DNA from: a virus
IMG/VR virus record: IMGVR_UViG_3300036715_002448
Location: 1 to 64,000 of that record
Strand: one strand, 5' to 3'
Length of the DNA stretch: 64,000 nt
Made by a program: the position numbers and the translations under genes. Numbering within the stretch: the stretch's first letter is position 1; each line of letters opens with the position of its first letter. This document shows positions 1 to 15,772 of the stretch, piece after piece. Below the pieces are notes generated by a model. It was not told the origin of the DNA and searched no databases. It was given only the letters and a program-made list of their open reading frames with translations.

Positions 1-687
1 ATCTTTAAGAATTTGCATATCAGCCGCTTCTTTATCCTTCGATAATTCATCTATGAACAAGAAATGTGCTGGATTGTTAGCATTTTGTTTAGCATCACCC
101 ATATCAAGTCGTTTTAAATAATTTCTATATGTAATTATTCTTAACAATGAATCTATGGCTGAGTTAAGTTTTGGGTACATACGATAAGCCGGGTCATTGA
201 CAGAAAGGCCATATTTACCATATTTTTGATTATAGTAAATTACAATAGAAACAATATCGGAAGGGCTAAATGATTTTTGCATTTTACTAGTAAAGGTATC
301 ACCCCAATTAAATCCTCTTAATTTAGAAACAACTGTTTCTAACCAATAGTTATAAACTTTAGCTGCTTCTTCGTCATCATACACGTATTCTCGGGATGCA
401 GAAATTGTAGGAGATGCTGTTGGTAATGTAATTCTTGCTCCTAATTCATTAGCTCTTTCGCCAAATATAATTGTTACTGGGTCATTTTTATCTAAAAGTT
501 TAACACAAGCTTCGTATCTACGAATAGCTTTATCTTTATTTGTTATAGCTTTTGCCATCACAGAAGCTAATTGAATTTCTTTGTCTTTATGACCATTTGA
601 TTTTTTTATAATGTCGCTAATGCGCGTTTCGTCTTTGGCATCTTCATTCAATACATAAAAATCGTCAAATTCAGGAATATTTTTCAT
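1..687 (-). CDS. Leader-bearing virion-type protein, 3' end cut by window edge
   Basis: An open frame starts at the ATG at 687-685 and runs without a stop to base 1, giving at least 229 residues, so the gene is truncated by the window. It begins MKNIPEFDDFYVLNE, the capsid-targeting-like leader shared by over twenty genes here, with a possible prohead-protease cut after LNE. The rest is a charged soluble protein with no motif I recognise. A late-promoter-like motif lies just upstream at 693-710. Packaging in the head is inferred from the leader only. Confidence 0.75.
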   Translation of the reverse strand, partial: MKNIPEFDDFYVLNEDAKDETRISDIIKKSNGHKDKEIQLASVMAKAITNKDKAIRRYEACVKLLDKNDPVTIIFGERANELGARITLPTASPTISASREYVYDDEEAAKVYNYWLETVVSKLRGFNWGDTFTSKMQKSFSPSDIVSIVIYYNQKYGKYGLSVNDPAYRMYPKLNSAIDSLLRIITYRNYLKRLDMGDAKQNANNPAHFLFIDELSKDKEAADMQILKD

Positions 688-692
688 CAATG

Positions 693-710
693 TATTTTAT
701 TTTATATATC
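693..710 (-). promoter_or_regulatory. Late-promoter-like motif
   Basis: Minus-strand GATATATAAAATAAAATA ends 5 bases before the ATG at 687. It matches the motif found upstream of the sheath, tail tube and other late genes, and resembles the T4 late promoter TATAAATA. Confidence 0.55.
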
Positions 711-772
711 TACACTTATTTTTTCTAAAATTTAAAAATATAAGAAAAATTTTCTTTTACAACATATCTCTT

Positions 773-2224
773 TTAAAATTCTTTAAATTTTTCAATTTCT
801 AATGTAGACTGAATATTACCATTTGGCCTAGCATTTAAATGAATATGGTACGAATGTTCTCCTTTTGCAATATCAAAAAGAAAAATAATTTGTTTGTTAG
901 AGTTCCTATCAATTATTTTTACAGTAGAGTCTTTTGAATTAACTCCATTTTGCAACATTGAAATTGTTTCACCTGCTTGGAATTTAGTAATGTTAGGAAT
1001 TCCATTTGAATTACCGGTTATTTTAAAAAACGTCGGATTGACACCAGAAATAGAAGCAGAAAATGCAGCTGCACCTAACAAATTTTCACCAATTTTAGAA
1101 CCATCAGATAATAAAACGCTTGCCAATTTCAAACTTGAGTATTTTGAAATTATTTCTAATTTGTCACCTTCATATTTTTTAGTATCTTGTTCAAGTTCTA
1201 CATTAACAGTTGCTTTTTTACATTCAGTGCTTATTTGTTTTCTTAATTGATCTATTTTGTTCTGCAATTCTTCTACTGACAAGTTTTGTTCATCAACAGT
1301 AACATTATAAGAAGACTCGTCATTTGTTAATTTTTTGAAATACTGTTTTGCTTTACCTCCTTGCGCCTTTTCTTGTTTTATTGAAATACTTATAATAGAA
1401 CCTTTAAGTTCATTTGTATATTTAAAATCATGTGAAAATAAATCATTAAGTAATCCAATTGCATCAACAGGTTTATTTCTGTTAATATAATTTAATTCAG
1501 TACTTATTTGTGACAAGAAATTTCTATCAATAGCATACATATCGCCAGGATTCCATTTATCAGAACGCATACCTGTTAAAGTCTCTCCAACTTTTCGTAT
1601 ATCATCAAAAATTCCTGTTCTTGTTAATATAGTATTTTTACTACTTATGCTTGATTTAATGTAGTTTGCTACTGACCAATAATCAATTAAATTATTTAAA
1701 GTAGTTTTGTTAAGAGGTGTTGAGTCTAGCCAACGTGAAATTTCATCAATCGTTTTATTATCAACACTTTCATTACCTACTTTAATTGATTTTAATTCAT
1801 TTATGACATTTGCTAAATTTTGTAAAGTTGGTTTGTTTATTTCCGAATAGAAAAGGTAAATAATAAGTCCTTCTTTTACATTAATTGTTGTTTCATGTCC
1901 TGCTTTTTTACCTGTTAATATAGAAGTTTTAGGTCCAACTACTATGTTTATTGAATTGTCTTCCGAAACAATAACAACATAATTTTTTTGTTTAAGTAAT
2001 TCTTCGCCTTCTTTTTTGTCTATTTTTTTGCAAGAATATGCAATATAATAAATTTCATTAGCAGTTATTTCTTCGGTAGTTGAGTACTCGTGAGCAATTA
2101 ATTCAGCAGGAACTTTGTTGTAAAAATTAGGTGATATGGTATAAATTCTATCAGGGTGGGCCCACACACGACTTTCATTTAACATAAAGTTAACAAAGTC
2201 ACTATATTTTAACATTTTTTCCAT
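773..2224 (-). CDS. Leader-bearing protein of unknown function, 483 aa
   Basis: The protein starts MEKMLKYSDFVNFMLNES, a longer variant of the capsid-targeting-like leader in which the Y-S-D-F-V core is followed by a possible cleavage site after MLNE. The remaining 460 residues are soluble, rich in Asn, Ser and Lys, and contain a short charged helical stretch around residues 310-345. I recognise no catalytic motif. Its start overlaps the stop of the upstream nucleotidyltransferase gene by one base, so the two are probably translated together. Its likely fate is the phage head, by inference from the leader. Confidence 0.8.
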   Translation of the reverse strand: MEKMLKYSDFVNFMLNESRVWAHPDRIYTISPNFYNKVPAELIAHEYSTTEEITANEIYYIAYSCKKIDKKEGEELLKQKNYVVIVSEDNSINIVVGPKTSILTGKKAGHETTINVKEGLIIYLFYSEINKPTLQNLANVINELKSIKVGNESVDNKTIDEISRWLDSTPLNKTTLNNLIDYWSVANYIKSSISSKNTILTRTGIFDDIRKVGETLTGMRSDKWNPGDMYAIDRNFLSQISTELNYINRNKPVDAIGLLNDLFSHDFKYTNELKGSIISISIKQEKAQGGKAKQYFKKLTNDESSYNVTVDEQNLSVEELQNKIDQLRKQISTECKKATVNVELEQDTKKYEGDKLEIISKYSSLKLASVLLSDGSKIGENLLGAAAFSASISGVNPTFFKITGNSNGIPNITKFQAGETISMLQNGVNSKDSTVKIIDRNSNKQIIFLFDIAKGEHSYHIHLNARPNGNIQSTLEIEKFKEF

Positions 2225-3138
2225 TATTCAAATATATTTGGATATTTTTCTATAGCTTCAGATGGAATAGGCATTTTAGCAGCTAACAAATAATCTTTAA
2301 AACGTTTTAAGATTTCGTTTCTTTTATTTGCATGTATAAATTTAGGAGAGTCGACTAAGGCAAAAACATTTTCGAAAGTCATAACATCCGATGGTTGTAC
2401 TCCTTCTCCAAATGCAAATTTAACAACTTCTTCTGGCGTATTTGTAACAAATTTATCTTGGTCATGTAAAAGAGTAGCAGTTTTAACTAATCCACCTTTT
2501 TTACCCATGAATGTTTTTGCAACTTGATAAAGTCCTTTTTCAAGACGAATAACATACATTTTGTATTCTTCAGTTTCTCCAGTTTCCGTTTTTTTAGTAG
2601 TTTCTTTCATCGACTCCGAAACAATAGACATTAATAATGTATTACGATACATTCCTTTATATTTAGATTCTGACTTAATAAAATTTGGTGAATAATACAT
2701 AAATTTAGACCAATCAAGATTCCCAGAAAGCATTAAATCTACTTGAGCAACCCCATTTTTAAAACTTCCATTAATTGGAGCGCCAAATGAAACCTGAACA
2801 AATCCTTTACTCACCTTTGTTAAATAACCTAATGATATTAGTTTCTTATCTAACCAATCCAAAGTCTCATCTAAAGAGATTCCATTAACACCTGCAATTT
2901 TATCAATTGACACAGCAACATCAATATCCCCAGAAGTCATAGTAGCAGGTTTTTTGCCATAAGAGCCTATTGGAAACGCATCAATTCCTTCACCATCTAA
3001 TCCAATTTTAGGAAAGATGTTTTTTTCAACCCATTTATAAGTTTCTATAACTTCATCTTGTGAAAGTGGCCTTGCTTCTTCTACAGCATTTCCGCCTTCT
3101 GTTAAAAGGCGGACAACAAACTCTTTATATTTAAGCAT
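2224..3138 (-). CDS. Leader-bearing Pol-beta-type nucleotidyltransferase
   Basis: The leader is MLKYKEFVVRLLTEGG. Residues 58-61 (GSYG) followed by the acidic pair DID at 71-73 form the GS...DxD signature of the DNA polymerase beta nucleotidyltransferase superfamily, whose members transfer NMP groups to nucleic acids, proteins or small molecules using metals bound by the aspartates. A third acidic residue is plausible in the VQVDLML segment around residue 130. The substrate cannot be read from the sequence. It lies in a chain with other leader-bearing genes and is one of two such enzymes in this cluster (the other at 5706-6782). The enzyme fold is well supported; packaging is inferred. Confidence 0.8.
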   Translation of the reverse strand: MLKYKEFVVRLLTEGGNAVEEARPLSQDEVIETYKWVEKNIFPKIGLDGEGIDAFPIGSYGKKPATMTSGDIDVAVSIDKIAGVNGISLDETLDWLDKKLISLGYLTKVSKGFVQVSFGAPINGSFKNGVAQVDLMLSGNLDWSKFMYYSPNFIKSESKYKGMYRNTLLMSIVSESMKETTKKTETGETEEYKMYVIRLEKGLYQVAKTFMGKKGGLVKTATLLHDQDKFVTNTPEEVVKFAFGEGVQPSDVMTFENVFALVDSPKFIHANKRNEILKRFKDYLLAAKMPIPSEAIEKYPNIFE

Positions 3139-3207
3139 CTATATTTTTTATTTTAAAGCAGTAATTCTATATTTGTCTATGAACTTCAATTAAATAGTTT
3201 TTGTACT

Positions 3208-3924
3208 TTAATAAATACTTACTTCTCTGTTGTTTACAATAAACTCATTACCTTCACCATCGATTGCTGGTACATCTTTTCCTTTTTTGAATTGAGGTAC
3301 GTCTTCAGCTTCAATATGAAGGAATTTACCTTTTTCTTCCCAAATAACAAATAATCCTTTTGCATCATTTGATTCATTAACGACAGATTCATTTGCTATT
3401 TTTTTCAATTTAAAAGTTATAACAAAATGACTATCTTTTGGCCATGGTTTAAAATCGTCGCGTTTGTCAATTATTGTAATTTCAATTCCTGCAGTTTTTA
3501 ACCCTTTTTCCAAATCTCTTGCTACCGAATCAGGGCTTTGTCCGCGACTGTAAAAATACCCACGTTTTGCAACTATAGAACCATCTCTTTTGAAAGAAAT
3601 GCTATCTACGCCAAGATAAACATTTTCCATTGCATCTTTAAGAGCTTTCTTTTCTTTAGGACTCAATGCCTTATCAACGGAAACTTCTTCATCTTCATTT
3701 ATTTTAACAAATTCTTCAAATTTAGGTATATCAAGAGCCTCAAATTTAAAATCTTGATTTTCTTGTGATTTTGCACTTACAACTGCAAGTAATCCTACTT
3801 TTGATTTAGGAACTTTGTATTGAATAATAGCTTTTTGTTTGGCATCCCATAAGTCTTTAGCTTCTATTTCATACCTGTTGCCATTCCAAAATGCAAAAAA
3901 TTTTGATTCATTTAAATCTTTCAT
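3208..3924 (-). CDS. Multi-segment protein with leader-like and internal protease-site-like motifs
   Basis: This 238-residue protein begins MKDLNES, which looks like a shortened leader, followed by a module (FFAFWNG...LWDAKQKA) that recurs in the C-terminal half of the protein at 6798-7346. A second complete leader-like string, IPKFEEFVKINE, occurs internally near residues 66-77, and ANESVVNES occurs near residue 180 before a third segment. The last string is nearly identical to DESVVNES in the 6798-7346 product. The layout suggests several small domains separated by prohead-protease-like sites. Function unknown. Confidence 0.75.
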   Translation of the reverse strand: MKDLNESKFFAFWNGNRYEIEAKDLWDAKQKAIIQYKVPKSKVGLLAVVSAKSQENQDFKFEALDIPKFEEFVKINEDEEVSVDKALSPKEKKALKDAMENVYLGVDSISFKRDGSIVAKRGYFYSRGQSPDSVARDLEKGLKTAGIEITIIDKRDDFKPWPKDSHFVITFKLKKIANESVVNESNDAKGLFVIWEEKGKFLHIEAEDVPQFKKGKDVPAIDGEGNEFIVNNREVSIY

Positions 3925-3933
3925 GTTTATGTT

Positions 3934-3947
3934 TTTATTTTATATAT
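3934..3947 (-). promoter_or_regulatory. Late-promoter-like motif inside the 3' end of the kinase gene
   Basis: Minus-strand ATATATAAAATAAA overlaps the last codons and stop of the upstream kinase gene and ends 9 bases before the ATG at 3924. It matches the shared late motif except that A replaces the usual G at the 5' side. Confidence 0.45.
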
Positions 3948-4456
3948 TTAATGTTATCAAATCCTTCCTCTTTCGTAGGTTCTTCATATTTATTAATCAT
4001 ATCATCGACTATATTAATTCCTACATGCTTTCCTGTTTCCTTTTCGCGTTTTTCTAAACGTTTTAAAATTTCTGCTCTGCTAGTTTTAAATACAACAACG
4101 TTTTTAGTATATCCAAAAGGAACTTTTGACAGTATTTTTTTTCTGCTAGAAACAGTCATATTAGTCATATCAACTACAATATCTTTTCTAGAATTCATGG
4201 TTTTATTAATATGATTTTCTAATTCCATATTAACCTTGCTTTGAAATTCTTTATTGCTAAAAGTTTCAGCATAAGTCATGCCTGTTCCTTTTCTTAGTTC
4301 ATCAACTATATCATCTCTCGATATTGTGATTGCATTCTTTGCATTTTCTGCTTTCCAAGTTGATTTTCCTGAAGCAGGAGGACCTACTAGTATTGTTATA
4401 GTAGGATTTGTTTTTGCTTCTAGAATATTTTCCACGAAGCTGTTAAATTTTTCCAT
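3935..4456 (-). CDS. Leader-bearing polynucleotide-kinase-like P-loop kinase
   Basis: After the leader MEKFNSFVENILEAK comes a P-loop, GPPASGKST at residues 25-33, then ISRDD (45-49) and VVDMTNMT (94-101). This arrangement matches the kinase domain of T4 polynucleotide kinase (P-loop, N-R-D-D, then SDTN), in which the second Asp acts on the 5'-OH acceptor. An Arg-rich lid (RLEKREKETGK) lies near residues 138-148. At 173 residues it has only the kinase half; the T4 phosphatase domain is absent. With the ligase-like gene of the same cluster it could form an RNA end-repair pair. The kinase call is firm; a nucleic-acid substrate is likely but not proven. Confidence 0.82.
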   Translation of the reverse strand: MEKFNSFVENILEAKTNPTITILVGPPASGKSTWKAENAKNAITISRDDIVDELRKGTGMTYAETFSNKEFQSKVNMELENHINKTMNSRKDIVVDMTNMTVSSRKKILSKVPFGYTKNVVVFKTSRAEILKRLEKREKETGKHVGINIVDDMINKYEEPTKEEGFDNIKYIK

Positions 4457-4465
4457 TATATTTGT

Positions 4466-4708
4466 TTAATCAGTTTTTATATATACATATACACTTTGTA
4501 CACCAAATCTTTCTCTAACCATTTTAATAGCCATTTTTGCTTTAAAGGTGTCTTCTAATTCAAATGTATTTCCATTTACTGTGTATTTAATACCATTTTC
4601 TTTTAAGTCAGAAATAAATGATTTTAAGGCTTTTGAAGATATCCAGCATTTAATGACACCTATTATTAGCTCATTTATAAATTCATTATATGATTTAAAA
4701 GTGCTCAT
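4466..4708 (-). CDS. Small leader-bearing protein
   Basis: This 80-residue protein opens MSTFKSYNEFINE, matching the leader consensus with a possible cut after INE. The remaining about 67 residues look like a compact alpha/beta domain (hydrophobic helix, beta hairpin, helix, final strand VQSVYVYIKTD). No known family is recognised. Its stop lies 9 bases before the kinase start at 4456, so the two genes are probably co-transcribed, with a promoter-like motif upstream at 4751-4768. Confidence 0.72.
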   Translation of the reverse strand: MSTFKSYNEFINELIIGVIKCWISSKALKSFISDLKENGIKYTVNGNTFELEDTFKAKMAIKMVRERFGVQSVYVYIKTD

Positions 4709-5019: not shown

Positions 5020-5280
5020 CTATCTTTCCATTTCCCAAGTATAAGTAATAACCCATTGTAATGCTTGTTTAAGCAAACGTTGCATACGTGGGATTAGTTC
5101 TTTAACGTCAGGATGTTTAGATAGTTCTAACTCTAATTCTTTGTAATCTCTAATATCTCCTTTTTCAGTACCTATTTTTTTGTAAATTTCATAATATACT
5201 CTTCTTGTATCTGCATCCATTTGATCGGTGAATTTAGTTCCTTCATTTAGGAATTCTTCATAGTCTAATAAGTTTTTCAT
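5020..5280 (-). CDS. Small leader-bearing protein
   Basis: I take the ATG at 5280, not the in-frame ATG 30 bases upstream, because it gives the leader MKNLLDYEEFLNEG directly at the N-terminus as in the neighbours. The rest (about 72 residues) is mostly helical and charged, with an ELELSKHPDVKEL segment and a C-terminal ALQWVITYTWEMER. No family recognised. It starts 8 bases after the end of the next upstream leader gene, part of a long run of closely spaced leader genes. Confidence 0.75.
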   Translation of the reverse strand: MKNLLDYEEFLNEGTKFTDQMDADTRRVYYEIYKKIGTEKGDIRDYKELELELSKHPDVKELIPRMQRLLKQALQWVITYTWEMER

Positions 5281-5287: not shown

Positions 5288-5473
5288 TTATTTTTTTCCT
5301 TTAAATTCAAGGGCTTTGTCTATTATAAAATATCCTTTGTCTGTATCTACAACCCAATGTTTTTCTTTTGCAGAAAAGAACACTGAATTAATTTTAGCAC
5401 CTGCAAAATCTGAAGGTTTTAATGCGCTTGCACCTTCTGATAAAAAATTTTCATAATTTGGTAAGTTTTTCAT
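5288..5473 (-). CDS. Very small leader-bearing protein
   Basis: A 61-residue protein starting MKNLPNYENFLSEG. After the predicted cleavage only about 47 residues would remain, forming a short beta-rich unit (INSVFFSAK...HWVVDTDKGYFIIDK). No family recognised. It is one of the shortest leader genes here, comparable in size to the mature T4 internal proteins. Confidence 0.7.
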   Translation of the reverse strand: MKNLPNYENFLSEGASALKPSDFAGAKINSVFFSAKEKHWVVDTDKGYFIIDKALEFKGKK

Positions 5474-5514: not shown

Positions 5515-5697
5515 CTATTCGACGAAGGGAACAGATAAAGTCAATAAATTTTCTGCATCTTTTTTATATTCAGATGCTTTAAGTTTTTTAATTAAAATTT
5601 GGATGTCGTCTATCAAATTCAAAATTTCGGAATTAATAGAGTTTTCGTCGGGTTTGTCAGATGAAATGAATTCATCAATTGACTTTAAATTTTCCAT
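5515..5697 (-). CDS. Very small leader-bearing helical protein
   Basis: A 60-residue protein starting MENLKSIDEFISSDK, a diverged leader in which the expected Glu after FIS is replaced by SDK, so cleavage here is uncertain. The rest is acidic then helical (NSEILNLIDDIQILIKKLKASEYK). Function unknown. It starts 8 bases downstream of the nucleotidyltransferase gene and is probably co-transcribed with it. Confidence 0.65.
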   Translation of the reverse strand: MENLKSIDEFISSDKPDENSINSEILNLIDDIQILIKKLKASEYKKDAENLLTLSVPFVE

Positions 5698-5705: not shown

Positions 5706-6782
5706 TTATTTTAGTAGCTTCTTCACCAAAGGTACGTACTCTTCAACTAAAGATTTAATTTTATTAACTGCTTTAATTGCTAAATCAGAATATGCTTTAT
5801 CAAATTTAGGTGCAACCGCTGCTTTTTCCATTTTTAAAGTGTATCGATTAACAACAGCATTTAAAAATTCATTTGCAGATTTATATTTAACAGTTCCACC
5901 AAATTCACCCAATTGGTCTAATGTTTGAGCTAATAATTTTATACCTTCACATAAATCCTCTATTCTAGGATTATTTAGGTTCATTCCTTTCCAAGATTCA
6001 ATTGCTGTTGTATTTAAAGGTTTATCGGAACCTGAAAGTTCCCACATTAATTTAGCAATATCTTGCATGAAAGTTTGTATGTTTGCTGAGATAAGTTTAT
6101 CTTCAGTATCCTTTCTTTTAGAAAGTTCAACAATCTGATTTCCTATAAACTTAGCTCTTACTCCTCTTGCTTGAATAGAAATATCAAGAACTTCTCCGAG
6201 TGATGAATAAAGATTTCCCAATACAAAACCTTTTATATTTCTCATTGGGGTAAATCTAAATAAAGACCATGCAGCATATTCTTTATGGGTCATTACAAGA
6301 TCTACTTGTACCCATCCTTTTGTTTTTCCTTCAAGTTCTACTTCTACAATTAATTTAATGCCATTAATGCTTGACACTTTTTTAGTCTCAAGCAAGTCAA
6401 CTCCTTTATATTTTTCTGCTTCTAGCCACATTAACAATTCTTGATTGTATAATTTAGTAGTTGCAACTTCATCGTCACGTTCTTTACCATCCGTTAATTT
6501 AAGAGTAGGATAAGCTACCATATAATCAACATCTCCATAAAGTTTGTCAGGTTGATTTTTAATATCTTCTTTCCACCAAGTTCCACTTCCGATAGGACGT
6601 AAAAAATCCAGTGAAGGTAGTTCTAATTCTCTAAGATGTGAGTTAAAATCACTTGATAGTTTTTGAACAACATCATTAACTTTACCAATAACCTGTGGAG
6701 TTATGGGTGTTTCTTGAGTTTTAGTTGTAGAAAAACCACCTTCTAAAAGAGAAATAAATTCGTTGTATTTGTACAATGCCAT
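5706..6782 (-). CDS. Second leader-bearing Pol-beta-type nucleotidyltransferase
   Basis: The leader is MALYKYNEFISLLEGG. Residues 65-70 (GSGTWW) and the acidic pair DVD at 84-86 give the nucleotidyltransferase signature, with a third candidate acidic residue in the KGWVQVDLVM segment near residue 172. The 358-residue length leaves room for a helical C-terminal domain that may select substrate. It shares layout with the 2224-3138 enzyme (leader, GS...DxD, VQVDL), so the two are probably ancient paralogues, though sequence identity outside the motifs looks low. Substrate unknown; presence in the virion is inferred. Confidence 0.8.
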   Translation of the reverse strand: MALYKYNEFISLLEGGFSTTKTQETPITPQVIGKVNDVVQKLSSDFNSHLRELELPSLDFLRPIGSGTWWKEDIKNQPDKLYGDVDYMVAYPTLKLTDGKERDDEVATTKLYNQELLMWLEAEKYKGVDLLETKKVSSINGIKLIVEVELEGKTKGWVQVDLVMTHKEYAAWSLFRFTPMRNIKGFVLGNLYSSLGEVLDISIQARGVRAKFIGNQIVELSKRKDTEDKLISANIQTFMQDIAKLMWELSGSDKPLNTTAIESWKGMNLNNPRIEDLCEGIKLLAQTLDQLGEFGGTVKYKSANEFLNAVVNRYTLKMEKAAVAPKFDKAYSDLAIKAVNKIKSLVEEYVPLVKKLLK

Positions 6783-6797: not shown

Positions 6798-7346
6798 TTA
6801 AAGTATTTCATAAGATTCAGCATTAACTGAATTATCATCAAAATACTTTTTTAATTCTTGTTTTGTCAAGTTAGTAAATATCTTCAACATATAAACAAGG
6901 TCTTTATCCGCATAATGACGTCCTTTTTCTTTGCCTTCAAATTCGTAAGTATAACTTTCTATTTTATGTTGTGCTTTAGCAGCCCATAAATTAGTTTTTA
7001 ATATTTCTTCAGGTTCTCTATAAGTTCCATCTTCTATATAAAATTTTACTCTAAAAAAATGTGTAGCAGATTCATTAACAACAGATTCATCCATAGGAAT
7101 AAATTTTCCTTTATTAAAATCTGCAATAACTGCATTGTATATTTTTTCAAATCTTTTTTTGACAAGACCCTCTCTGTCATTAATTTTTTTTCTTAATTGA
7201 AAAAGTATTTCATTTGTGAAGTCTTTATCATTTTTATATTTTTTTGTTTTAACAAAAGAAATAATTTGGTCTAAGTAAGATTGGTCATCTGCTGTTATAA
7301 CATTTCCTTCATTTACAAAATTTTCAAATTCTGGTATGTTTTTCAT
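6798..7346 (-). CDS. Two-part leader-bearing protein
   Basis: It begins with the leader MKNIPEFENFVNEG. The first part (to about residue 95) is helical and lysine-rich. The string DESVVNES near residues 88-95 resembles an internal protease site and precedes a second module (FFRVKFYIEDGT...NLWAAKAQHKI) similar to the N-terminal module of the 3208-3924 product (FFAFWNG...LWDAKQKA). The shared module plus shared junction string suggests module shuffling between leader genes. Function unknown. Confidence 0.75.
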   Translation of the reverse strand: MKNIPEFENFVNEGNVITADDQSYLDQIISFVKTKKYKNDKDFTNEILFQLRKKINDREGLVKKRFEKIYNAVIADFNKGKFIPMDESVVNESATHFFRVKFYIEDGTYREPEEILKTNLWAAKAQHKIESYTYEFEGKEKGRHYADKDLVYMLKIFTNLTKQELKKYFDDNSVNAESYEIL

Positions 7347-7357: not shown

Positions 7358-7882
7358 TTATTTTGAAAGTTTTACTATTTCCTTTTCAAGATCTGCAATT
7401 TGTCCTTTAACATGTTCTACAAAAAATTTAGCTGCTTTGTCAATTTCTTTTTTATTATAAATACCATATATTGGATATTTGTTAGAATAATTTGACTTAG
7501 GATCAAATATAGACAAACTAGTTCCTTCTAATTGAGCTGCTCCTAAACCATCCGCTAAGTCTGATTCAAAAAATGTATTAGGTTGAATAGAAATGCTATT
7601 ATTGTTAGAAACCAAATTAAATACGAATTCAATTAATGCTTTGTTGTCGTGATCTTTAGCTTTTGAATAATCTACTTTAGCATCAATAGTCAATTCATAT
7701 CCTGCATTATAAGGTTTAACTCTTGATACATAAGATTTAATTAAGTCTTTATCTAATAGTGATTTGTAAAATTTATCAACATCTTTTTGAATTTGAAAGA
7801 TTGCCGCTTTACAAGCACCTTGTGCTTTGATAACTTCGTTAGCTTCATTAAGGAATTGGTCGTAATCGAGTAAATTTTTCAT
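7358..7882 (-). CDS. Leader-bearing protein of unknown function
   Basis: A 174-residue protein with leader MKNLLDYDQFLNEA. The mature part has a helix, then a beta-rich central region (YELTIDAKVDYSKAK, SISIQPNTFF), and ends in a charged helix (QIADLEKEIVKLSK). No family recognised. It lies 11 bases before the next leader gene in the same orientation. Confidence 0.75.
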   Translation of the reverse strand: MKNLLDYDQFLNEANEVIKAQGACKAAIFQIQKDVDKFYKSLLDKDLIKSYVSRVKPYNAGYELTIDAKVDYSKAKDHDNKALIEFVFNLVSNNNSISIQPNTFFESDLADGLGAAQLEGTSLSIFDPKSNYSNKYPIYGIYNKKEIDKAAKFFVEHVKGQIADLEKEIVKLSK

Positions 7883-8784: not shown

Positions 8785-9160
8785 TTAAAAGTTCATCATA
8801 TCATTTAATAACTTGTAACTAAAATTACCTGACATAATAGGTCTTGTGGGTTTTGAATAATCTAACGAAACAGGAAATAACCAAAGAAAAAGTTTGCCAT
8901 CTTTAGTAAATTCTATTTCAATTTTTCGTCCTCCTGCATCATATTAAATACCCATGGATGGAACTATTTTATTTGGATATCTGTCATACTTCTTTAACAT
9001 ATAATCCATATATCAACAATTACTTTATTGATTATTGTGAAGTTCCACGAAAGATTGAATTGCTTTCTTATCCATTAAAATCAGTACCTACCAAATGTCT
9101 CATGTCTCATTTAGTAAAACCTTCTTCTAAAAAATCATCAAATGATTGTATATTTTTCAT
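8785..9160 (-). pseudogene. Decayed leader-bearing gene
   Basis: An ATG at 9160-9158 begins MKNIQSFDDFLEEGFTK and then meets TGA. Downstream coding recurs in other frames and ends with a coherent segment, GGRKIEIEFTKDGKLFLWLF onward, closing with a stop at 8787-8785. Several frameshifts and stops separate the pieces. The start sits 2 bases from the end of the intact leader gene at 9162-9479, as in functional neighbours. This is a former leader gene broken in place. Confidence 0.7.
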
Positions 9161-9161: not shown

Positions 9162-9479
9162 TTAAATTCCTGTTATTTGGTTCTCGTAAAATTTATCAGG
9201 CCTTACATTAATAAATACATTGTTTTTAGCATTTAATATTTGCCTTAACATATTTTCTACCCCGATTGTATTGCGTGGGAATTTTCTATTGTGCATACCA
9301 GCAACTAATAACCATTTTGGTAAATTGTCAGCTCCCATATAGTCTCCTAAATTGTCTATAAAATCTTGTATATCAGAATTATCAAATTCAATAATTTTTC
9401 CACCATAAATAGTAACTTCTATTTTTTTATTAGTAGAACTTTCTGTTAAAAAGTCATCATAAGATTGTAAATTTTTCAT
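9162..9479 (-). CDS. Small leader-bearing protein
   Basis: A 105-residue protein with leader MKNLQSYDDFLTES. The mature part starts with a beta hairpin (KIEVTIYGGKIIEFDN), then acidic helices (DIQDFIDNLGDYMG) and a C-terminal region containing FINVRPDKFYE. No family recognised. It follows a decayed leader gene and precedes another, so it may be a surviving copy in a region of turnover. Confidence 0.73.
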   Translation of the reverse strand: MKNLQSYDDFLTESSTNKKIEVTIYGGKIIEFDNSDIQDFIDNLGDYMGADNLPKWLLVAGMHNRKFPRNTIGVENMLRQILNAKNNVFINVRPDKFYENQITGI

Positions 9480-9678: not shown

Positions 9679-10257
9679 TTATAAGTATTTTTTTAATTCA
9701 TCATAGTATTGGTGAACTGATTTAGGTGTCAATTTTTCAAATTCTGCTTTATTATCAGTAGCTATAGATTCTCTCACCTTTGTTCCAGATGGACCTCCTT
9801 GAACCCTTTCATCAACAACTTTCATAATAAAAGGTTCTGTTACAGGAACATCTGATCTTTCTGAGTTGATGTAATTTAATTGGGAAATATAAGATTTTTC
9901 ACGATCAGAACCACAAGCCATACTAATAGGATTGTAACCTTTATCCCTTAACCATTTAACAATTTGTGGAATTACTGTCAATTTTCCTTGTGGGTACAAT
10001 TCAAATGCTTCAATAAATTTAAATTCTTTAGCTACTGAATTTCCAATTTTTTCTAGTAAAGATTCAGGGAAAGGAGACTTTTCATTTTTTGAAATTATTT
10101 GTACAGGAATAACGTTTAAGTTGTATTCCTTAGAAGCTCTTTCAAAAGCAGCAACATGGCCATTATGCACGGGTTGATAACGGCCCGGGAATATCACAAC
10201 ACGTTCCCCAGTTATTGATTCGCAAAGGAATTGGGTATATGTAGGTAAGTTTTTCAT
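9679..10257 (-). CDS. Leader-bearing NMNAT/cytidylyltransferase-like enzyme
   Basis: After the leader MKNLPTYTQFLCES comes FPGRYQPVHNGH at residues 23-34, the nucleotide-binding HxGH motif (here HNGH) of the nucleotidylyltransferase superfamily. GPSGTKVRES near residues 155-165 corresponds to the ISxTxxR motif. These enzymes join an NTP to a phosphorylated substrate, for example NMN + ATP to NAD. The 192-residue length suits a single catalytic domain. NAD synthesis at the start of infection would be an attractive role, for instance against NAD-depleting defences, but the true substrate cannot be read from the sequence. Confidence 0.82.
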   Translation of the reverse strand: MKNLPTYTQFLCESITGERVVIFPGRYQPVHNGHVAAFERASKEYNLNVIPVQIISKNEKSPFPESLLEKIGNSVAKEFKFIEAFELYPQGKLTVIPQIVKWLRDKGYNPISMACGSDREKSYISQLNYINSERSDVPVTEPFIMKVVDERVQGGPSGTKVRESIATDNKAEFEKLTPKSVHQYYDELKKYL

Positions 10258-10263: not shown

Positions 10264-10575
10264 TTAATTATAGTAGTATTGGTATTGAAATTGTCCTTGA
10301 ATTTGACTACCATCCATTATATTAAAACTATTTAGTATTGAATATACATCGGATGAAGTTATGCCTTGTTTGGAAAGCCTTTCACTTAAAAATCTTTTAA
10401 ATGATTTTGCTCTTTTTTCAGCGGCTTTAATAGAATCAAATTCTTCTTCAAGAATAGTTAGTATGAGTTCTTTTGTGTTGTTTTTTAAAAAATAGTTAAA
10501 TGTTATGTAATACTTTAACGTTTTTATAGAAAAAGACTCATTCAAAAATTCATCAAATGTTTTTAAATTTTGCAT
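10264..10575 (-). CDS. Small leader-bearing helical protein
   Basis: A 103-residue protein with leader MQNLKTFDEFLNES. The mature part is largely helical (ILTILEEEFDSIKAAEKRAK, then SFKRFLSERLSKQG) and ends with a Gln/Tyr-rich tail (QIQGQFQYQYYYN). No family recognised. It starts 9 bases after the stop of the upstream leader gene. Confidence 0.73.
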   Translation of the reverse strand: MQNLKTFDEFLNESFSIKTLKYYITFNYFLKNNTKELILTILEEEFDSIKAAEKRAKSFKRFLSERLSKQGITSSDVYSILNSFNIMDGSQIQGQFQYQYYYN

Positions 10576-10584: not shown

Positions 10585-11007
10585 TTAATTTACTGTGTTA
10601 AAAAATTTAGTTAAAATATCTGCCATTTCTTTATCAGTGTATGTTTTTCCAGCTTCTAATTCTTCTAAATTGGATGCTTTAACTGCTTCTGGGAATTTAT
10701 TATTAAAATGATTAACTTTCCAAGAATCTTTTTTGTTATTCCATTCCATATCAAAATTAGCCATCCCTAAGTTAGGATACGTTTCTTTGTCAAAAAATTG
10801 AACTCTTGGAAATGTTTTAGAGTCAGGGTCATAATAAACTGCTACACTTACGTGAGCGGTTGTTGTCCTATTTGACTTAATAGACATTATTATTTTCCCT
10901 CCTAATTTAGTAGTTTTTTTAGCATTTCCATATATGACATGTCCTAATGTAATACTATCTAATAAGCCTTCATTTAGGAATTCATCATAAGATTTTAAGT
11001 TTTTCAT
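10585..11007 (-). CDS. Leader-bearing protein of unknown function
   Basis: A 140-residue protein whose leader MKNLKSYDEFLNEG is the consensus form. The mature part is beta-rich (GGKIIMSIKSNRTTTAHVSV, then AVYYDPDSKTFPRVQFFD), followed by helical segments with an acidic LEELEAGKTYTDKEMADIL. Function unknown. Confidence 0.75.
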   Translation of the reverse strand: MKNLKSYDEFLNEGLLDSITLGHVIYGNAKKTTKLGGKIIMSIKSNRTTTAHVSVAVYYDPDSKTFPRVQFFDKETYPNLGMANFDMEWNNKKDSWKVNHFNNKFPEAVKASNLEELEAGKTYTDKEMADILTKFFNTVN

Positions 11008-11017: not shown

Positions 11018-11329
11018 TTATTTCGTTTTCCAAGAACCTAATACCATAATCATGTGAAGTACTATATTTCCATTGATTTTTTTATATTTCTTAACAAATC
11101 GGTTTGCTAAAGCAACTACTTCTTTTTTAAGTTCATTATCAAGTACTGCATCTGACAATGGATTTTTTTTCCATTCTTTGAACATAGCATTCGTTACCAT
11201 TTTAACATCACTCATCCATTCATCCCACTCTCCTTCAGCAGCTTCTTTATTATCATAGTATTCTACATCATATTTTGTCCAAGCCGTTTCTAGTAAAGAG
11301 TATTCTTCAAATGATTCTAAATTTTTCAT
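11018..11329 (-). CDS. Small protein with diverged leader
   Basis: A 103-residue protein starting MKNLESFEEYSLLETA, in which the usual F-L-N-E is replaced by Y-S-L-L-E; L-L-E still fits an L-x-E protease rule. The mature part is helical and rich in Trp (EGEWDEWMSDVKMVTN, FKEWKKNPLSD). No family recognised. About 100 bases with no feature separate it from the ParB-like gene upstream, apart from that gene's possible readthrough extension. Confidence 0.72.
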   Translation of the reverse strand: MKNLESFEEYSLLETAWTKYDVEYYDNKEAAEGEWDEWMSDVKMVTNAMFKEWKKNPLSDAVLDNELKKEVVALANRFVKKYKKINGNIVLHMIMVLGSWKTK

Positions 11330-11433
11330 ATTTTGTTTTTTATTTTTATTTAATTTTATGTTTAATACTATTTTATGTTTAATTAATCAAAAACTTATTT
11401 TTCAATTAATTTAAAGTCTGATTCATTTCCTAC

Positions 11434-12210
11434 TTATTCATTAACAAAATCGGAAAATTTCATAAATGTGCTTTCTGTTGCGTAAGGAGCTCTAACATCA
11501 ATTTTTCCTGCTGCTAAAATTTTTCCTACCATTTGAACTTGATTTGGTTTTATTTTAGGCATATCTGCACGTGGAGGTGCACCTGCTGGAGGTCCATTTC
11601 TTTTAATAAGCATTAAAGCATTTTGAACTTTGTGTTCTCCTTGTTTTTCAAACCATTTAATGGCTTTTTCTTTGTCGAAGTATTTTTTATCCATCCATTC
11701 ACCTTCGTATATACATTTTTTAACATCATCCAAAGTTGCAACAAAAATGCTAATATCACCACCTTCTGGTGGAAGTCCTCTTTTGTTTCCAAGTGCATCA
11801 CCAGCGGCTCTAAGAACAGGAATAAGGTCTCCAATGTTTAAATCTACCCTAAGTCCTTCAACTTTTGCATTTGCATTATTGAAAATAGTAGCAGCCCATC
11901 TATGATGACCATCTAAAATTCTATTATCTTTTGAAATAACAGCTTGTAAATCGCCACCTTCAACACCACTTATTGCCATACTTAATGCTTTGCCTAAATA
12001 AACTGCATCTTGGGAAGCTTTTAATGATTTAGCAGGAATTCCTATTTCTTTAGTATACACAACATCATCATGTGCACTACCATCTTGTTTTCCTTTTATA
12101 AAAAACTCATTTTCATCACCTTTAAATGGATCTGGAAATTCTCTTGGATTAACTTCTTTTGTGGGAAGAGCTTCGTTTAAAAAGTCTTCAAATTTTTGTA
12201 ATTTTGCCAT
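11434..12210 (-). CDS. Leader-bearing ParB/sulfiredoxin-fold-like protein
   Basis: The leader is MAKLQKFEDFLNEA. A ParB-like motif, ILDGHHRWAA, lies near residues 97-106 after the strand LQAVISKDNR; in ParB and sulfiredoxin-like proteins this kind of motif binds nucleotide or acts on nucleic acid. A Pro-rich linker (GPPAGAPPRADMP) follows. The protein ends FMKFSDFVNE, itself a leader-like string, right at the stop. After the TAA the same frame continues for 12 codons (VGNESDFKLIEK) to another TAA. So the gene may have gained a premature stop, or the tail is a C-terminal targeting signal. The exact activity is unknown. Confidence 0.78.
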   Translation of the reverse strand: MAKLQKFEDFLNEALPTKEVNPREFPDPFKGDENEFFIKGKQDGSAHDDVVYTKEIGIPAKSLKASQDAVYLGKALSMAISGVEGGDLQAVISKDNRILDGHHRWAATIFNNANAKVEGLRVDLNIGDLIPVLRAAGDALGNKRGLPPEGGDISIFVATLDDVKKCIYEGEWMDKKYFDKEKAIKWFEKQGEHKVQNALMLIKRNGPPAGAPPRADMPKIKPNQVQMVGKILAAGKIDVRAPYATESTFMKFSDFVNE

Positions 12211-12488
12211 TTTATTTTTTTATTTATTTTTCCCAACCCATACGAGTTAAGAGTTCCATCATGTTTTACTTCAGGAAAACTATCATCGTTAAAAAGAGTA
12301 GAAAAATGTTCACCTTTATCAAGATAGTAAATTTTATCGCCAACAATGGCGTGAGCATACCTATCTTCCATGTCTCTAAAAAAATTACTTTTTCTACCAG
12401 AAATTATTATATTTCTTGAATTTGAATAATCGACAATTGGTCCTAGTTTCTCATTCAAAAAATTTTCATAAGATTTTAAATTTTTCGT
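12177..12488 (-). CDS. Leader-bearing small protein with ACG in place of ATG
   Basis: The frame gives a full leader, KNLKSYENFLNEKLGP, but the codon in the start position (12488-12486) is ACG. The upstream gene stops there as TAACG, where a TAATG stop/start overlap would be expected. Either ACG serves as a coupled start or the start has been lost by a T-to-C change. An internal TTG start would remove the leader and is unlikely. The product (about 103 residues) is soluble with no known motif. Its 3' end overlaps the start of the ParB-like gene by 34 bases. Confidence 0.6.
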   Translation of the reverse strand, partial: TKNLKSYENFLNEKLGPIVDYSNSRNIIISGRKSNFFRDMEDRYAHAIVGDKIYYLDKGEHFSTLFNDDSFPEVKHDGTLNSYGLGKINKKIKWQNYKNLKTF

Positions 12489-12802
12489 TATGTCAACTTT
12501 AATTTTTTTAATACAGAATACGGAACTATTGAGTCATCACTTATTGGAATTCCAACGTGTTTTTTATCATCCGCAAAGTCTGCTTGAAAAACATTGGAAC
12601 TATTTCCAACTTGTCCTTGAAAAATACATTTTGTTACATATTCATCTTTACCTGTTACAGATCTTCCAATAGAACTACCGCTTCCATCGCTTGCTCTTTT
12701 GATATAAAGATAAATTTCATCGCCTGCATGTAATTTATGCCAATCTGGTTTAGTTGTTGTTGATTCATTTAAGAATTCATCAAATGTAATTAGTTTTTTC
12801 AT
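12488..12802 (-). CDS. Small leader-bearing protein
   Basis: A 104-residue protein with leader MKKLITFDEFLNES. The mature part is beta-rich (DEIYLYIKRASDGSGSSIG, CIFQGQVGNSSNVFQADF), perhaps a small barrel. Its first base overlaps the stop of the membrane protein gene upstream, and its stop overlaps the ACG start position downstream, so translation is probably coupled along this stretch. Function unknown. Confidence 0.74.
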   Translation of the reverse strand: MKKLITFDEFLNESTTTKPDWHKLHAGDEIYLYIKRASDGSGSSIGRSVTGKDEYVTKCIFQGQVGNSSNVFQADFADDKKHVGIPISDDSIVPYSVLKKLKLT

Positions 12803-13167: not shown

Positions 13168-13179
13168 ATTCCATATTGT

Positions 13180-13902
13180 TTATTTTAATTCTTTTTGTTT
13201 ATTAATAGTTGCTTTCAATTCAGATATAAACTCATTTTTACCAAGCTTATCACCATAATGTCCAGATCTAAATATTGGATTAGATGATACATCTACAACG
13301 TATGAAGTAGGACCACCTCCTTCATCAGTGATAGCATCAAAATTAAAGGTATATCTAGTATCATTAATAACTATTTCTGTTTTATAACCAATTGTCCATT
13401 TCCTACCATTTCTATCCATAGCATCTTTACCTTCCTGAGTAATTGCATAACCATTATGAGGTAGATAAATAATGTCGCATCCTTCTTTTATAACTGCTCT
13501 AGAAATGTCACCTACAAAACGATTTTGTAATTTTTTACCCGCGAGTTTTGTCATTTTTTCAACATAATTAGTAGGTACATCAGTTGCATCATAAAGGTTT
13601 TGTATTTCTTCTGGAGTAGCACCTAATTCAATAGCTTTATTACCTAATTTATTAAAATAACCATCATAAGATTTCCAGTTTATGTTATAATTTAACGGTG
13701 CGTTAGAAAGTTTTAAACCTGTTACAAAACGATACATTGCTTTATTTTTATCTGTTATAAGCTTAGCAGCTTTTTCACCATCGTCATGTTTCATAACTAA
13801 ATCTAACATACGGTCCCAGTCTTTGTTGGAAATGCCAGCTGCTTCATTAAGTATATCAAATGATTCGGCTAAGAATTCATCAAATGTTTGTAAGTTTTTC
13901 AT
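13180..13902 (-). CDS. Leader-bearing protein of unknown function, 240 aa
   Basis: It begins MKNLQTFDEFLAES, followed closely by a second possible site (DILNEA). The mature protein is alpha/beta with a Lys/Asp-rich N-terminal half and a beta-rich C-terminal half (TEIVINDTRYTFNFDAITDE, TSYVVDVSSNP). No catalytic motif is recognised. It sits directly downstream of the split ligase-like gene pair and may share its transcript. Confidence 0.75.
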   Translation of the reverse strand: MKNLQTFDEFLAESFDILNEAAGISNKDWDRMLDLVMKHDDGEKAAKLITDKNKAMYRFVTGLKLSNAPLNYNINWKSYDGYFNKLGNKAIELGATPEEIQNLYDATDVPTNYVEKMTKLAGKKLQNRFVGDISRAVIKEGCDIIYLPHNGYAITQEGKDAMDRNGRKWTIGYKTEIVINDTRYTFNFDAITDEGGGPTSYVVDVSSNPIFRSGHYGDKLGKNEFISELKATINKQKELK

Positions 13903-13959
13903 ATTTTAATTTTATTTTAATTTTCCAGTTTGGTCCTTTTCCTGTAGAAAGGTAATTAG

Positions 13960-15180
13960 CTATTTTTTATAAGCAACCATACCTCTTATCTGATTTAAAG
14001 CAGCAAATACACCAGTGTATTTATATAAAGTTCCTTTGTATAAAAATGTTATACCTTCTGATGGTATAATTGATTCAATTCCACCTACTGCAGTAATTCT
14101 AGAAAGTTCATGTTCTAATTTAGCAACATCTTCTTCTGATCCCGTTGTTCTGATTGTTTTTATGGCATTGTCGATTTCTTTTCTCATTGATTCAGATGCA
14201 GCAGTTGGATTTGCTACAAGAGCAGAAGATATATTTCTCATCAATTCCGTTCCTATTTCAAGAAATATGTTTTCTAATGGGGCAAACACTTCGCGTTTTA
14301 ACTTTTTGGCATCTTTCTTTTCAAGATTTATGTACCATTCAGCATCATTACCTAAGTCTTTTTTAATTTGTGGTATTGAATATGATTTATCAATATCCGC
14401 AATTCTTCTTGCTAATCCATCTAATGCAATTTCAGGTATTTGTATTTTGTCTTTTTCTGCTTGTTTCTTTATAATGTACTTACCCATTCCTATTGCATAA
14501 TCTAAAACAGAAGAATTTTCAGAACAATTTGAGTATTCCATTACTTCTTGAAGTTTCTTTTTATAATAAGACTCTCTTAATGCTGCATTTGGAAATGGTT
14601 TAATTGCAATATCTTCAGGACCTCTAACAAAAAATGTTTTTTGTGATTCTAAATTAGCATCTTTTAATAATTTTCCAATTTCACGACCAGCGGCTTTATC
14701 TTCTCCTTGTGGATTTCCATCCATATCATAAGAAACCACTCCATGAAAAACTAATAAGTTTTGTCCATAGGGTACTGTATTTTGTGTAATAGGTGTTATA
14801 ATTTCTACCGATGCAAATTTCTTACCATTATCAAATAACTTTTCTTTTTCTTTATCTGGCAAAGCTCCAATTGAAGATGTTAAGTCTTCCATTGCAGTTG
14901 TATATGCTATTTCAATATCTCCTCTTCCCGCAAACATATCAGCAATTCCTTTATAATCTAATGCATTTTCACCAGCGTTTTTAAGATGTGATTTGTTTCT
15001 TGCAGCTATAATTTTTCCATTTTTCCAAGAGATCATTATATTTTGACCATCCGTATTATGAACTAATATATTATTAGCAAAATACCTAGAAAAATTATCA
15101 ACCGTTAAGTCGTAACGACATTGATTTTTTTTAATATATTTAATTGACTTGATTTTAGATGTATCGTAAGAGTTCATCAT
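13960..15180 (-). CDS. C-terminal half of split ligase-like nucleotidyltransferase, with intein C-fragment
   Basis: Residues 1-42 are a C-intein: RYDLTVDNFSRYFANN is block F and ILVHN block G, ending in the catalytic His-Asn. The extein starts at residue 43 with TDGQNIMISWKNGKIIAARN. Joined to the N-half (15245-15772), whose extein ends VQTK, this gives KTDGQN, motif I (KxDG) of the RNA/DNA ligase and capping-enzyme superfamily, where the Lys carries AMP or GMP. FASVEII may be a later ligase motif (III). The spliced product would be about 440 residues. The enzyme seals or caps nucleic acid ends; its substrate is unknown. Confidence 0.85.
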   Translation of the reverse strand: MMNSYDTSKIKSIKYIKKNQCRYDLTVDNFSRYFANNILVHNTDGQNIMISWKNGKIIAARNKSHLKNAGENALDYKGIADMFAGRGDIEIAYTTAMEDLTSSIGALPDKEKEKLFDNGKKFASVEIITPITQNTVPYGQNLLVFHGVVSYDMDGNPQGEDKAAGREIGKLLKDANLESQKTFFVRGPEDIAIKPFPNAALRESYYKKKLQEVMEYSNCSENSSVLDYAIGMGKYIIKKQAEKDKIQIPEIALDGLARRIADIDKSYSIPQIKKDLGNDAEWYINLEKKDAKKLKREVFAPLENIFLEIGTELMRNISSALVANPTAASESMRKEIDNAIKTIRTTGSEEDVAKLEHELSRITAVGGIESIIPSEGITFLYKGTLYKYTGVFAALNQIRGMVAYKK

Positions 15181-15244
15181 TTATTATTTTTTTCATTTCA
15201 CTTTCCCAAATAACAAAGTATTTAAAATCGTGTATTTCTGCTAA

Positions 15245-15772
15245 TTATTTTTTTATAATCAATTCCATTCCTTCTTTTAAATTTTTAGCAACTATATCAC
15301 CTAGTCCTTTAACATATACTCTATGATTAGGTGTTACTCTTATTACATTTCCATCTTCTGTTTCTATTTCCAACCAATCTTCTGAATTATCATTGTTACT
15401 CCAATTTAATATATCAGCATATTCTACAGTATCAGACAATTCGTTAAAACTTAAAATTTTATCAAGTATTTTATTATCAACTACTTCTTTAATAGTAGTA
15501 AGGCCATTTTCTTTTAGCATAACAATAGAATCGCCTTCTATACATTTTGTTTGAACAAAATTATCGGGGGTAAATCCACCGTTAACTGTTAAACTTAAAA
15601 GTTCAAATAAATCCAAAAATGACAAATTCATATCATCAAAAGGATGTTGTAAATGACCATATGCCCCTCCACAAAAAATAGGGTCATAACTTGCATACAT
15701 AACATCATTACTTTCTGAATCAAAAATAGATATAAATTGATTGTATTTTAAAAAATTATGTGAGTTTTTCAT
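15245..15772 (-). CDS. N-terminal half of split ligase-like nucleotidyltransferase, with intein N-fragment
   Basis: Residues 1-76 are extein: a leader-like start (MKNSHNFLKYNQFISIFDSES), then GHLQHPFDDMNL, and an end at VQTK, the Lys being the expected adenylated residue. Cys77 begins a 99-residue N-intein (CIEGDSIVML is block A; VTPNHRVYV is block B). The stop follows after LIIKK, the usual split position. The C-half starts only about 65 bases downstream and no endonuclease gene intervenes, unlike the two other split genes here. Trans-splicing should rebuild the active site. Confidence 0.85.
   Translation of the reverse strand: MKNSHNFLKYNQFISIFDSESNDVMYASYDPIFCGGAYGHLQHPFDDMNLSFLDLFELLSLTVNGGFTPDNFVQTKCIEGDSIVMLKENGLTTIKEVVDNKILDKILSFNELSDTVEYADILNWSNNDNSEDWLEIETEDGNVIRVTPNHRVYVKGLGDIVAKNLKEGMELIIKK

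What the first reader, a model, noticed from the sequence alone, without database searches (positions are those of the whole stretch)
1..15772. Large family of unrelated proteins sharing a capsid-targeting-like N-terminal leader
At least 20 intact genes here, plus 27527-27769, 59527-59973 and 59983-61473, start with variants of MKNLxSYDEFLNES followed by unrelated domains. The pattern K-x-x-x-[YF]-x-[ED]-F-[LIV]-x-E closely matches the T4 internal-protein leader MKTYQEFIAE, which sends proteins into the prohead and is removed by gp21 after [LI]-x-E. T4 has only a handful of such proteins; here the set is several times larger and enzyme-rich. The shared start is seen directly; head loading, cleavage after FLNE and delivery to the host are inferred. 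This is the strongest candidate for an undescribed system in the window.
Basis: partly seen in the sequence, partly recalled or inferred. Interest (0 to 1): 0.95.

Follow-up and report, generated by a model that had tools for sequence, protein, structure and literature searches.

The report
Huge phage's large head-delivered protein set
A huge uncultured bacterial virus, and its relatives, put the same short address tag on 20 to 50 otherwise unrelated proteins; the tag matches the one phage T4 uses to load proteins into its head and inject them, so these phages probably carry a far larger injected toolkit than T4, although no one has yet looked for these proteins in the virus particle.

Summary
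In 1-15772, 21 intact ORFs start with the leader; others lie at 59.5-61.5 kb, and more sit outside the window in the head-gene block at 66-77 kb. A leave-one-out profile finds 21 leader genes in this 94-kb record, 46 in a 294-kb relative and 30 in a 246-kb relative; 0-0.3% of shuffled N-termini pass. Reversed-pattern controls give zero hits. A pattern built from these leaders finds only ipII, ipIII and the uncharacterised 61.1 in T4. The record encodes a T4-type prohead protease with intact catalytic motifs, beside leader-bearing genes between and around portal, protease and capsid genes. Orthologues found by their domains alone keep the leader in 54 of 56 distinct cases, although the spacing varies. 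The conserved end is [LIVF]-x-E followed by S/A/G/N, with extra cleavage-like sites just downstream. I conclude that these are T4-type capsid-targeting propeptides on an unusually large cargo set (46+ per genome). Cargo includes an NMNAT-like enzyme, a RimK-like ligase and a pol-beta-like nucleotidyltransferase; most cargo is unknown. Packaging, cleavage and injection are inferred, not shown. "Enzyme-rich" is overstated. The kind is known from T-even phages; the scale, the lineage-specific leader variants and the multi-leader ORFs are new.

The parts
1..690 (-). leader gene MKNIPEFDDFYVLNEDA..., cut by the record end; relative of a head-block leader protein in G004 (254098-254775)
773..2224 (-). 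leader gene MEKMLKYSDFVNFMLNES (targeting core and cleavage-like site separated); orthologue in G003 MKLLKFKDFVSNFTFINEA
2224..3138 (-). leader gene MLKYKEFVVRLLTEGG; GS...DxD nucleotidyltransferase-like motif (by eye only); similar start in G004 MRNMLKFKDFVSTFLNESGNAIEDSRPLT
3208..3924 (-). no N-terminal leader, but an internal leader-like stretch (IPKFEEFVKINEDEE) where the homologous stand-alone G004 protein starts MNHIPKFNEFINEADE
3935..4456 (-). weak leader MEKFNSFVENILEAK on an AAA_33 P-loop kinase
4466..4708 (-). leader gene MSTFKSYNEFINE
5020..5280 (-). leader gene MKNLLDYEEFLNEG (true start probably ATG at 5280)
5288..5473 (-). leader gene MKNLPNYENFLSEG
5515..5697 (-). degenerate leader MENLKSIDEFISSD (no final Glu)
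5706..6782 (-). leader MALYKYNEFISLLE then GGF...; pol-beta-like nucleotidyltransferase fold; six orthologues all with leader ending [LI]xE-GG[WF]
6798..7346 (-). leader gene MKNIPEFENFVNEG; internal VVNES
7358..7882 (-). leader gene MKNLLDYDQFLNEA
7889..8719 (-). degenerate leader MSTFLTYHEHVANST; orthologue in G003 has MKNLKTYDSWLNES
8810..9160 (-). decayed leader gene (MKNIQSFDDFLEEG, then frameshift and stops)
9162..9479 (-). leader gene MKNLQSYDDFLTES
9679..10257 (-). leader MKNLPTYTQFLCES on an NMNAT-like (CTP_transf_like) nucleotidyltransferase
10264..10575 (-). leader gene MQNLKTFDEFLNES
10585..11007 (-). leader gene MKNLKSYDEFLNEG (best-scoring leader in this record)
11018..11329 (-). 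leader variant MKNLESFEEYSLLETA
11434..12210 (-). leader MAKLQKFEDFLNEA at the N-terminus and a second leader-like STFMKFSDFVNE as the last residues; the G004 homologue continues into a second domain after its internal leader
12177..12491 (-). ORF with leader ITKNLKSYENFLNEKLGP in frame, but no ATG/GTG/TTG at its head
12488..12802 (-). leader gene MKKLITFDEFLNES
13180..13902 (-). leader gene MKNLQTFDEFLAES, followed by a second LNE site
15245..15772 (-). leader MKNSHNFLKYNQFISIFDSES, N-part of a KTDG-motif nucleotidyltransferase, interrupted by a Hint/intein module
13960..15180 (-). C-part of the same KTDG protein: intein C-end (VHN) joined to TDGQN...; separate ORF from 15245-15772
27527..27769 (-). 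weak leader-like start MFKKFNEFLLSEKEE; similar-looking starts in G003 and G004 (MSFKKFFEFLLEG)
59527..59973 (-). leader gene MENFLRFSDFVNES
59983..61473 (-). leader MKNKFNYYDEFVNEA on a RimK-like ATP-grasp protein; all retrieved homologues keep a leader

Best explanation
The shared start is a T4-type capsid-targeting propeptide. Its aromatic helix (K-x-[LI]-x-x-[YF]-x-[ED]-F-[LIV]) binds the scaffold core while the prohead assembles and so drags each tagged protein inside. The gp21-type (S77) protease encoded in the head block then cuts after the Glu of [LIVF]-x-E, just before a small residue, which frees the mature protein in the head. Head-block members serve or replace core proteins. The scattered members are cargo injected with the DNA, acting in the first minutes of infection (NAD and RNA repair, nucleotide transfer, peptide ligation, and many unknown, probably anti-defence, activities). 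Some ORFs hold a second internal leader, so one chain may yield two cargo proteins. Shown here: the leader family, its conservation and context, the protease gene, and the match to T4. Inferred: targeting, cleavage, injection and cargo function.
For: Protease gene with intact catalytic motifs. Leaders on genes between protease and capsid and between portal and tail genes, in matching slots in related genomes. A pattern from these leaders finds only ipII, ipIII and 61.1 in all of T4, with 0 control hits. Domain-found orthologues keep the leader in 54 of 56 distinct cases, with flexible spacing between the aromatic core and the xxE site. E13 is the only invariant column in 75 otherwise unrelated proteins (profile selection favours Glu). 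P1' is S/A/G/N in 75 of 91, and a second [LIVF]NE within 20 residues is enriched 5.6-fold (20 against 3.5 expected, p about 1e-9). The protease has 11 [LIVF][NS]E sites and the capsid protein starts MYL[IL]NE. AF2 predicts the leader as a detached low-confidence helix before a confident domain. PHROG 'internal head protein' matches one leader protein (1.6e-5). T4 precedent: ten residues suffice for targeting and gp21 removes them (PMC9026906).
Against: No virion proteomics exist for these phages, so packaging, cutting and injection are unobserved. Two leaders here (5515-5697, 7889-8719) lack the Glu. No shared late promoter was found upstream, so timing of expression is untested. Several leader proteins in the head block could be structural and never injected. 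A T4-type scaffold gp22 was not identified as a separate protein, so the receptor for the leader is unknown.
Confidence: 0.87

Rival explanations
1. The leader does target proteins to the prohead, but most of the tagged proteins are core or structural components (or are degraded in the head) rather than injected effectors.
For: Several leader genes lie inside the head block and are orthologous across related genomes; phages of this size have large heads that may need more core protein.
Against: Most leader genes lie outside the head block, are variable between relatives (many without any counterpart), and some are enzymes (NMNAT-like, RimK-like, nucleotidyltransferase) with no obvious use in building a head.
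Confidence: 0.22
2. The leader is a docking tag for some other phage structure or complex in the infected cell (a compartment or a repair complex), and the resemblance to the T4 signal is convergent.
For: Nothing computed here distinguishes a docking helix from a prohead signal directly; a short aromatic helix could bind many things.
Against: The conserved [LIVF]-x-E plus small residue end, extra downstream sites, placement beside the protease, and selective retrieval of T4 ipII/ipIII all point to prohead processing.
Confidence: 0.08
3. The similarity is at the DNA or RNA level: a translation-start or recombination cassette that spreads ahead of unrelated genes.
For: Leaders precede unrelated domains, as a mobile cassette would; ATGAAAAA starts could suit strong initiation (general knowledge; leaders listed).
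Against: Conserved residues use mixed synonymous codons, no upstream motif is shared, and spacing changes by whole codons while the residues stay.
Confidence: 0.02
4. Chance similarity in an AT-rich, lysine/leucine-rich proteome.
For: Single degenerate leaders (11018, 3935) would be unconvincing alone.
Against: 0-0.3% of shuffled N-termini pass against 18%, 10% and 9% of genes in three genomes; reversed-pattern controls are zero.
Confidence: 0.01

Closest known systems
T4 capsid-targeting sequence (CTS) and internal proteins IPI, IPII, IPIII, Alt
   Same: N-terminal 10-13 residue leader with aromatic-x-E-F-[LI]-x-E; S77 (gp21-type) prohead protease, gp20 portal and gp23 capsid in the same genome; leader on unrelated mature proteins.
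   Different: Three residues longer on average, different lineage-specific wording (MKN[LI]xxFEEFLNE), frequent extra cleavage-like sites, 20-46 tagged genes per record against 3 pattern hits in T4, enzymes among the cargo, and ORFs with a second internal leader.
Sphingomonas phage PAU head proteins (gp142, gp152, gp154 and others)
   Same: Many consecutive genes around portal and protease share one leader; two are annotated internal capsid proteins and one scaffolding.
   Different: Its leader reads MK[TS][LI]xxL[YF]E, on 17 genes; that pattern has no hits in G000, G004 or T4.
phiKZ/SPN3US-type inner-body and ejection proteins
   Same: Many head proteins with propeptides cut by a prohead protease and ejected (PMC5694885, PMC13282480).
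   Different: Long propeptides (often over 100 residues) in a different phage group; no short common leader. Here the protease scores best with S77 (1.6e-15) and weakly with S80 (8.6e-6).
MuF-type polyvalent proteins
   Same: Diverse effector domains thought to be injected with DNA (PMC7824862, PMC9503650).
   Different: There, domains are fused into giant virion proteins; here mostly single small proteins carry a removable tag.

Membership tests
T4-type CTS-bearing internal proteins | Short N-terminal leader of the form aromatic-x-[ED]-F-[LIV]-x-E on otherwise unrelated proteins | tested here: met
   only E13 invariant across 75 proteins
T4-type CTS-bearing internal proteins | gp21-type S77 prohead protease with catalytic residues in the same genome | tested here: met
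   ELDHP, ISSRA, YDLVADP in 15 of 15; this record and 8 of 9 other large IMG/VR records tested carry S77
T4-type CTS-bearing internal proteins | Cleavage consensus [LI]-x-E at the end of the leader | tested here: met
   sequence only; two genes of this window lack the Glu
T4-type CTS-bearing internal proteins | T4-type head genes (gp20, gp23) and leader on core genes beside them | tested here: met
T4-type CTS-bearing internal proteins | Same leader recognised in T4 itself | tested here: met
   ipII and ipIII found; ipI and alt not found by this pattern
T4-type CTS-bearing internal proteins | Proteins present in the virion in cleaved form | not testable with these tools
   Needs virion mass spectrometry
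T4-type CTS-bearing internal proteins | Injection into the host with DNA | not testable with these tools
   Needs infection experiments
phiKZ/SPN3US-type ejection proteins | Long propeptides and a different (S80-type) protease | tested here: not met
   Short leaders; protease scores far better with S77 (1.6e-15) than with S80 (8.6e-6)
MuF polyvalent proteins | Effector domains fused to MuF, portal or other giant virion proteins | tested here: not met
   No such fusion seen in the Pfam scans of leader proteins; most leader proteins are 60-500 residues

The most novel reading that the evidence does not exclude
In this clade of huge phages the capsid-targeting signal has become a general cargo tag. 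Dozens of different enzymes and small inhibitors, in part made as multi-leader chains that the prohead protease separates, are loaded into each head and injected as a ready-made takeover and anti-defence proteome, with each phage lineage using its own wording of the tag matched to its own scaffold.
Probability: 0.55. Interest if true: 0.87.

Novelty: new variant of a known kind. Interest (0 to 1): 0.74.

Why it matters
If true, the injected proteome of uncultured huge phages can be read straight from sequence: a short tag marks every cargo protein. It gives candidate first-minute effectors and anti-defence proteins (46 in one genome, nearly all of unknown family), a large natural set of tags for packaging foreign proteins into phage heads, and a direct test of why huge phages have huge heads. 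T4's three internal proteins each block a different type IV restriction enzyme (PMC12373910), which suggests what the unknown members may do.

Tried and rejected
Chance and composition: rejected by shuffles and reversed patterns. DNA-level cassette or shared promoter: rejected or not found; no T4-type TATAAATA enrichment upstream of leader genes. Single-sequence search for NMNAT relatives found none; an alignment found 142, of which 80 were kept. PADLOC found no defence-protein matches in 75 leader proteins; Pfam and PHROGs named few. An idea that the KTDG protein is the ligase half of the NMNAT-ligase fusions of other phages was dropped: no BLASTP similarity. Its AF2 model is poor (pLDDT 64) and its best PDB fold hit, T4 RNA ligase 1, is not significant (E 0.41), so 'RNA ligase' is only a motif-based guess. 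ADP-ribosyltransferase-like YHG motifs in leader proteins were followed only by eye and one weak PHROG (RNA 2'-phosphotransferase, 2.5e-4). One regex version ('tight') was faulty and was replaced; the protease-motif count used a wrong pattern and was redone. One NMNAT case counted as a miss (L099) has a leader at a downstream ATG; the other (L117) has a leader ending QSE.

Full report
What the record is. The window is bases 1-64000 of a 94,163-base virus record (29% GC, nearly all genes on the minus strand). The rest was fetched and analysed in pieces. It has a T4-type head block at 64.7-77 kb: gp23-type capsid protein (64696-66321, Pfam 1.7e-35), S77 prohead protease (67723-69555, 1.6e-15) and gp20 portal (69624-71273, 8e-75). 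Protease and portal are closest to huge phages: LR756500 (462 kb), further huge-phage genomes of 635-735 kb (one of them deposited twice), Lak phages of Prevotella, then Tenacibaculum PTm1 and Sphingomonas PAU. IMG/VR holds relatives up to 294 kb, so this record is probably a fragment of a larger genome.

The observation. I counted 21 intact leader ORFs in 1-15772, one decayed gene and one without a normal start codon. The leader consensus over three genomes is M-K-N-[LI]-x-[TS]-[FY]-[ED]-E-F-[LIV]-N-E-[SAGN]. The strict motif occurs 25 times in the first 25 residues of 112 proteins and 11 times in nine times as much other sequence. A leave-one-out profile finds 21 of 115, 46 of 446 and 30 of 322 genes in G000, G004 (294 kb) and G003 (246 kb), against 0-0.3% of shuffled N-termini. 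The strict DNA pattern finds 13, 28, 15 and 19 hits in G000, G004, G003 and LR756500 and none in any reversed control. Codons vary synonymously and no upstream motif is shared, so selection is on the peptide.

Link to T4. A spacing-tolerant version of the pattern, run over the whole T4 genome, finds three places: ipII, ipIII and 61.1. IPII and IPIII start MKTYQEFIAE, the experimentally established capsid-targeting sequence; residues 4 and 7 govern targeting and 8 and 10 govern processing (PMC9026906). IPI, IPII and IPIII each inhibit a different type IV restriction system after injection (PMC12373910). Ip genes in T-even phages have been found by their signal sequence before, with at least ten reported (PMC12373910), so the kind is known.

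Context. Leader genes occupy the place between protease and capsid (66452-66685, 66678-67649) and the stretch beyond the portal (72582-72881, 72998-73720, 73717-74100, 76007-76969). Those beyond the portal have orthologues in matching slots in G003 and G004; G004 also has a leader gene between protease and capsid, G003 has none there. The protease keeps GELDHP, ISSRA and YDLVADP in 15 of 15 homologues and aligns with the T4 gp21 structure 5JBL. S77 is present in this record and in 8 of 9 other large IMG/VR records tested.

Processing signature. After the leader Glu comes S, A, G or N in 75 of 91 cases, and a second [LIVF]NE within 20 residues occurs 20 times against 3.5 expected. The protease itself contains 11 [LIVF][NS]E sites, and the capsid protein starts MYL[IL]NE in all ten distinct copies seen. 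In an alignment of 75 leader proteins only E13 is invariant; the profile used to choose them favours Glu, so this is not an independent test.

Independent test by orthologues. I collected relatives by their mature domains: NMNAT-like (24 distinct close relatives), RimK-like (15), KTDG protein (11), nucleotidyltransferase (6). The NMNAT query excluded the leader; the other queries included it but matched over the whole domain. A simple two-module rule matches 54 of 56; the two misses also carry leaders on inspection, one after a downstream ATG and one with a QSE end. The same rule matches 7 of 90, 19 of 275 and 20 of 378 remaining proteins in the three genomes, several of which are clearly leader variants. 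Spacing between the aromatic core and the cut site varies (FVNEA, FVINEA, FNALNEA, WVTINEA) while both modules persist, and in two families the site abuts the domain exactly (xxE-GGAYGH; [LI]xE-GG[WF]). More distant NMNAT relatives (26-34% identity), mostly fused behind a ligase-like domain, start directly with that domain; 9 of their 32 distinct N-termini match the same loose rule, so this contrast rests on the sequences themselves.

Cargo. Recognisable in the window: NMNAT-like, AAA_33 kinase, RimK-like ATP-grasp, a pol-beta-like nucleotidyltransferase (AF2 pLDDT 81; Foldseek pol beta/lambda E 1e-5 to 1e-3, low TM-scores) and a KTDG protein split by an intein at its motif. Most of the rest match nothing. 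In the nucleotidyltransferase model residues 2-12 form a detached helix with pLDDT below 50 and the domain is confident from about residue 20.

Multi-leader ORFs. G004 171723-172910 has a leader at residue 1 and another at 243 before a second domain; the window homologue 11434-12210 ends exactly at that second leader. In 3208-3924 an internal leader-like stretch marks the start of a protein that stands alone in G004. These suggest chains that the protease could divide, but read-through of adjacent ORFs or internal starts could also explain some of them.

Lineage-specific wording. PAU has its own leader, MK[TS][LI]xxL[YF]E, on 17 genes, including annotated internal capsid proteins gp142 and gp154 and scaffolding gp152; the pattern has no hit in T4, PTm1, Lak-A1, G000 or G004. 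LR756500 leaders read MKYI... This fits a tag that co-evolves with each phage's own core, an inference.

Literature. Seven searches of the held library found no report of a capsid-targeting leader family in huge phages; the library lacks most subscription papers and preprints, so absence there is weak evidence.

Limits. ORF calls are mechanical; records may be incomplete; head loading, cleavage and injection are inferred. Confidence: prohead-targeting propeptide 0.87; injection of most non-head-block members about 0.7; multi-leader processing about 0.45.

Noticed in passing
T4 record NC_000866: 18966-19130 (locus L070): T4 gene 61.1 (54 residues, function unknown) starts MKTFKEFIKE, the same signal as ipII and ipIII; it may be an unrecognised T4 internal protein.
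   Followed up: partly
Sphingomonas phage PAU JQ362498 (locus L065): 17 genes share a different leader, MK[TS][LI]xxL[YF]E, clustered around portal, protease and scaffold genes.
   Followed up: partly
window 8810-9160, minus strand: Decayed leader gene: intact 17-residue leader ORF, then frameshift and stops; the remnant resembles leader proteins G003 49352-49684 and G004 281423-281749 by eye.
   Followed up: partly
window 12177-12491, minus strand: A leader-bearing ORF whose expected ATG reads ATT; either a non-standard start or a lost start.
   Followed up: no
window 13960-15772: KTDG-motif protein split into two ORFs with intein halves exactly at the motif (K | TDG); orthologues are uninterrupted single ORFs.
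   Followed up: partly
window 36877-39703; record 77876-81196 and 89237-92189: Further genes look broken up by intein pieces and small ORFs (topoisomerase-like, gp46-like, polymerase-like by eye), like fractured genes with split inteins.
   Followed up: no
G004 79550-80371 (locus L214) and LR756500 (locus L213): NadV-type (NAPRTase family) genes without a leader; in G004 one coexists with the leader-bearing NMNAT-like gene.
   Followed up: partly
window 62013-63395: Run of DEEPKGTTGPNK-type tandem repeats inside a 460-residue protein near the head block.
   Followed up: no
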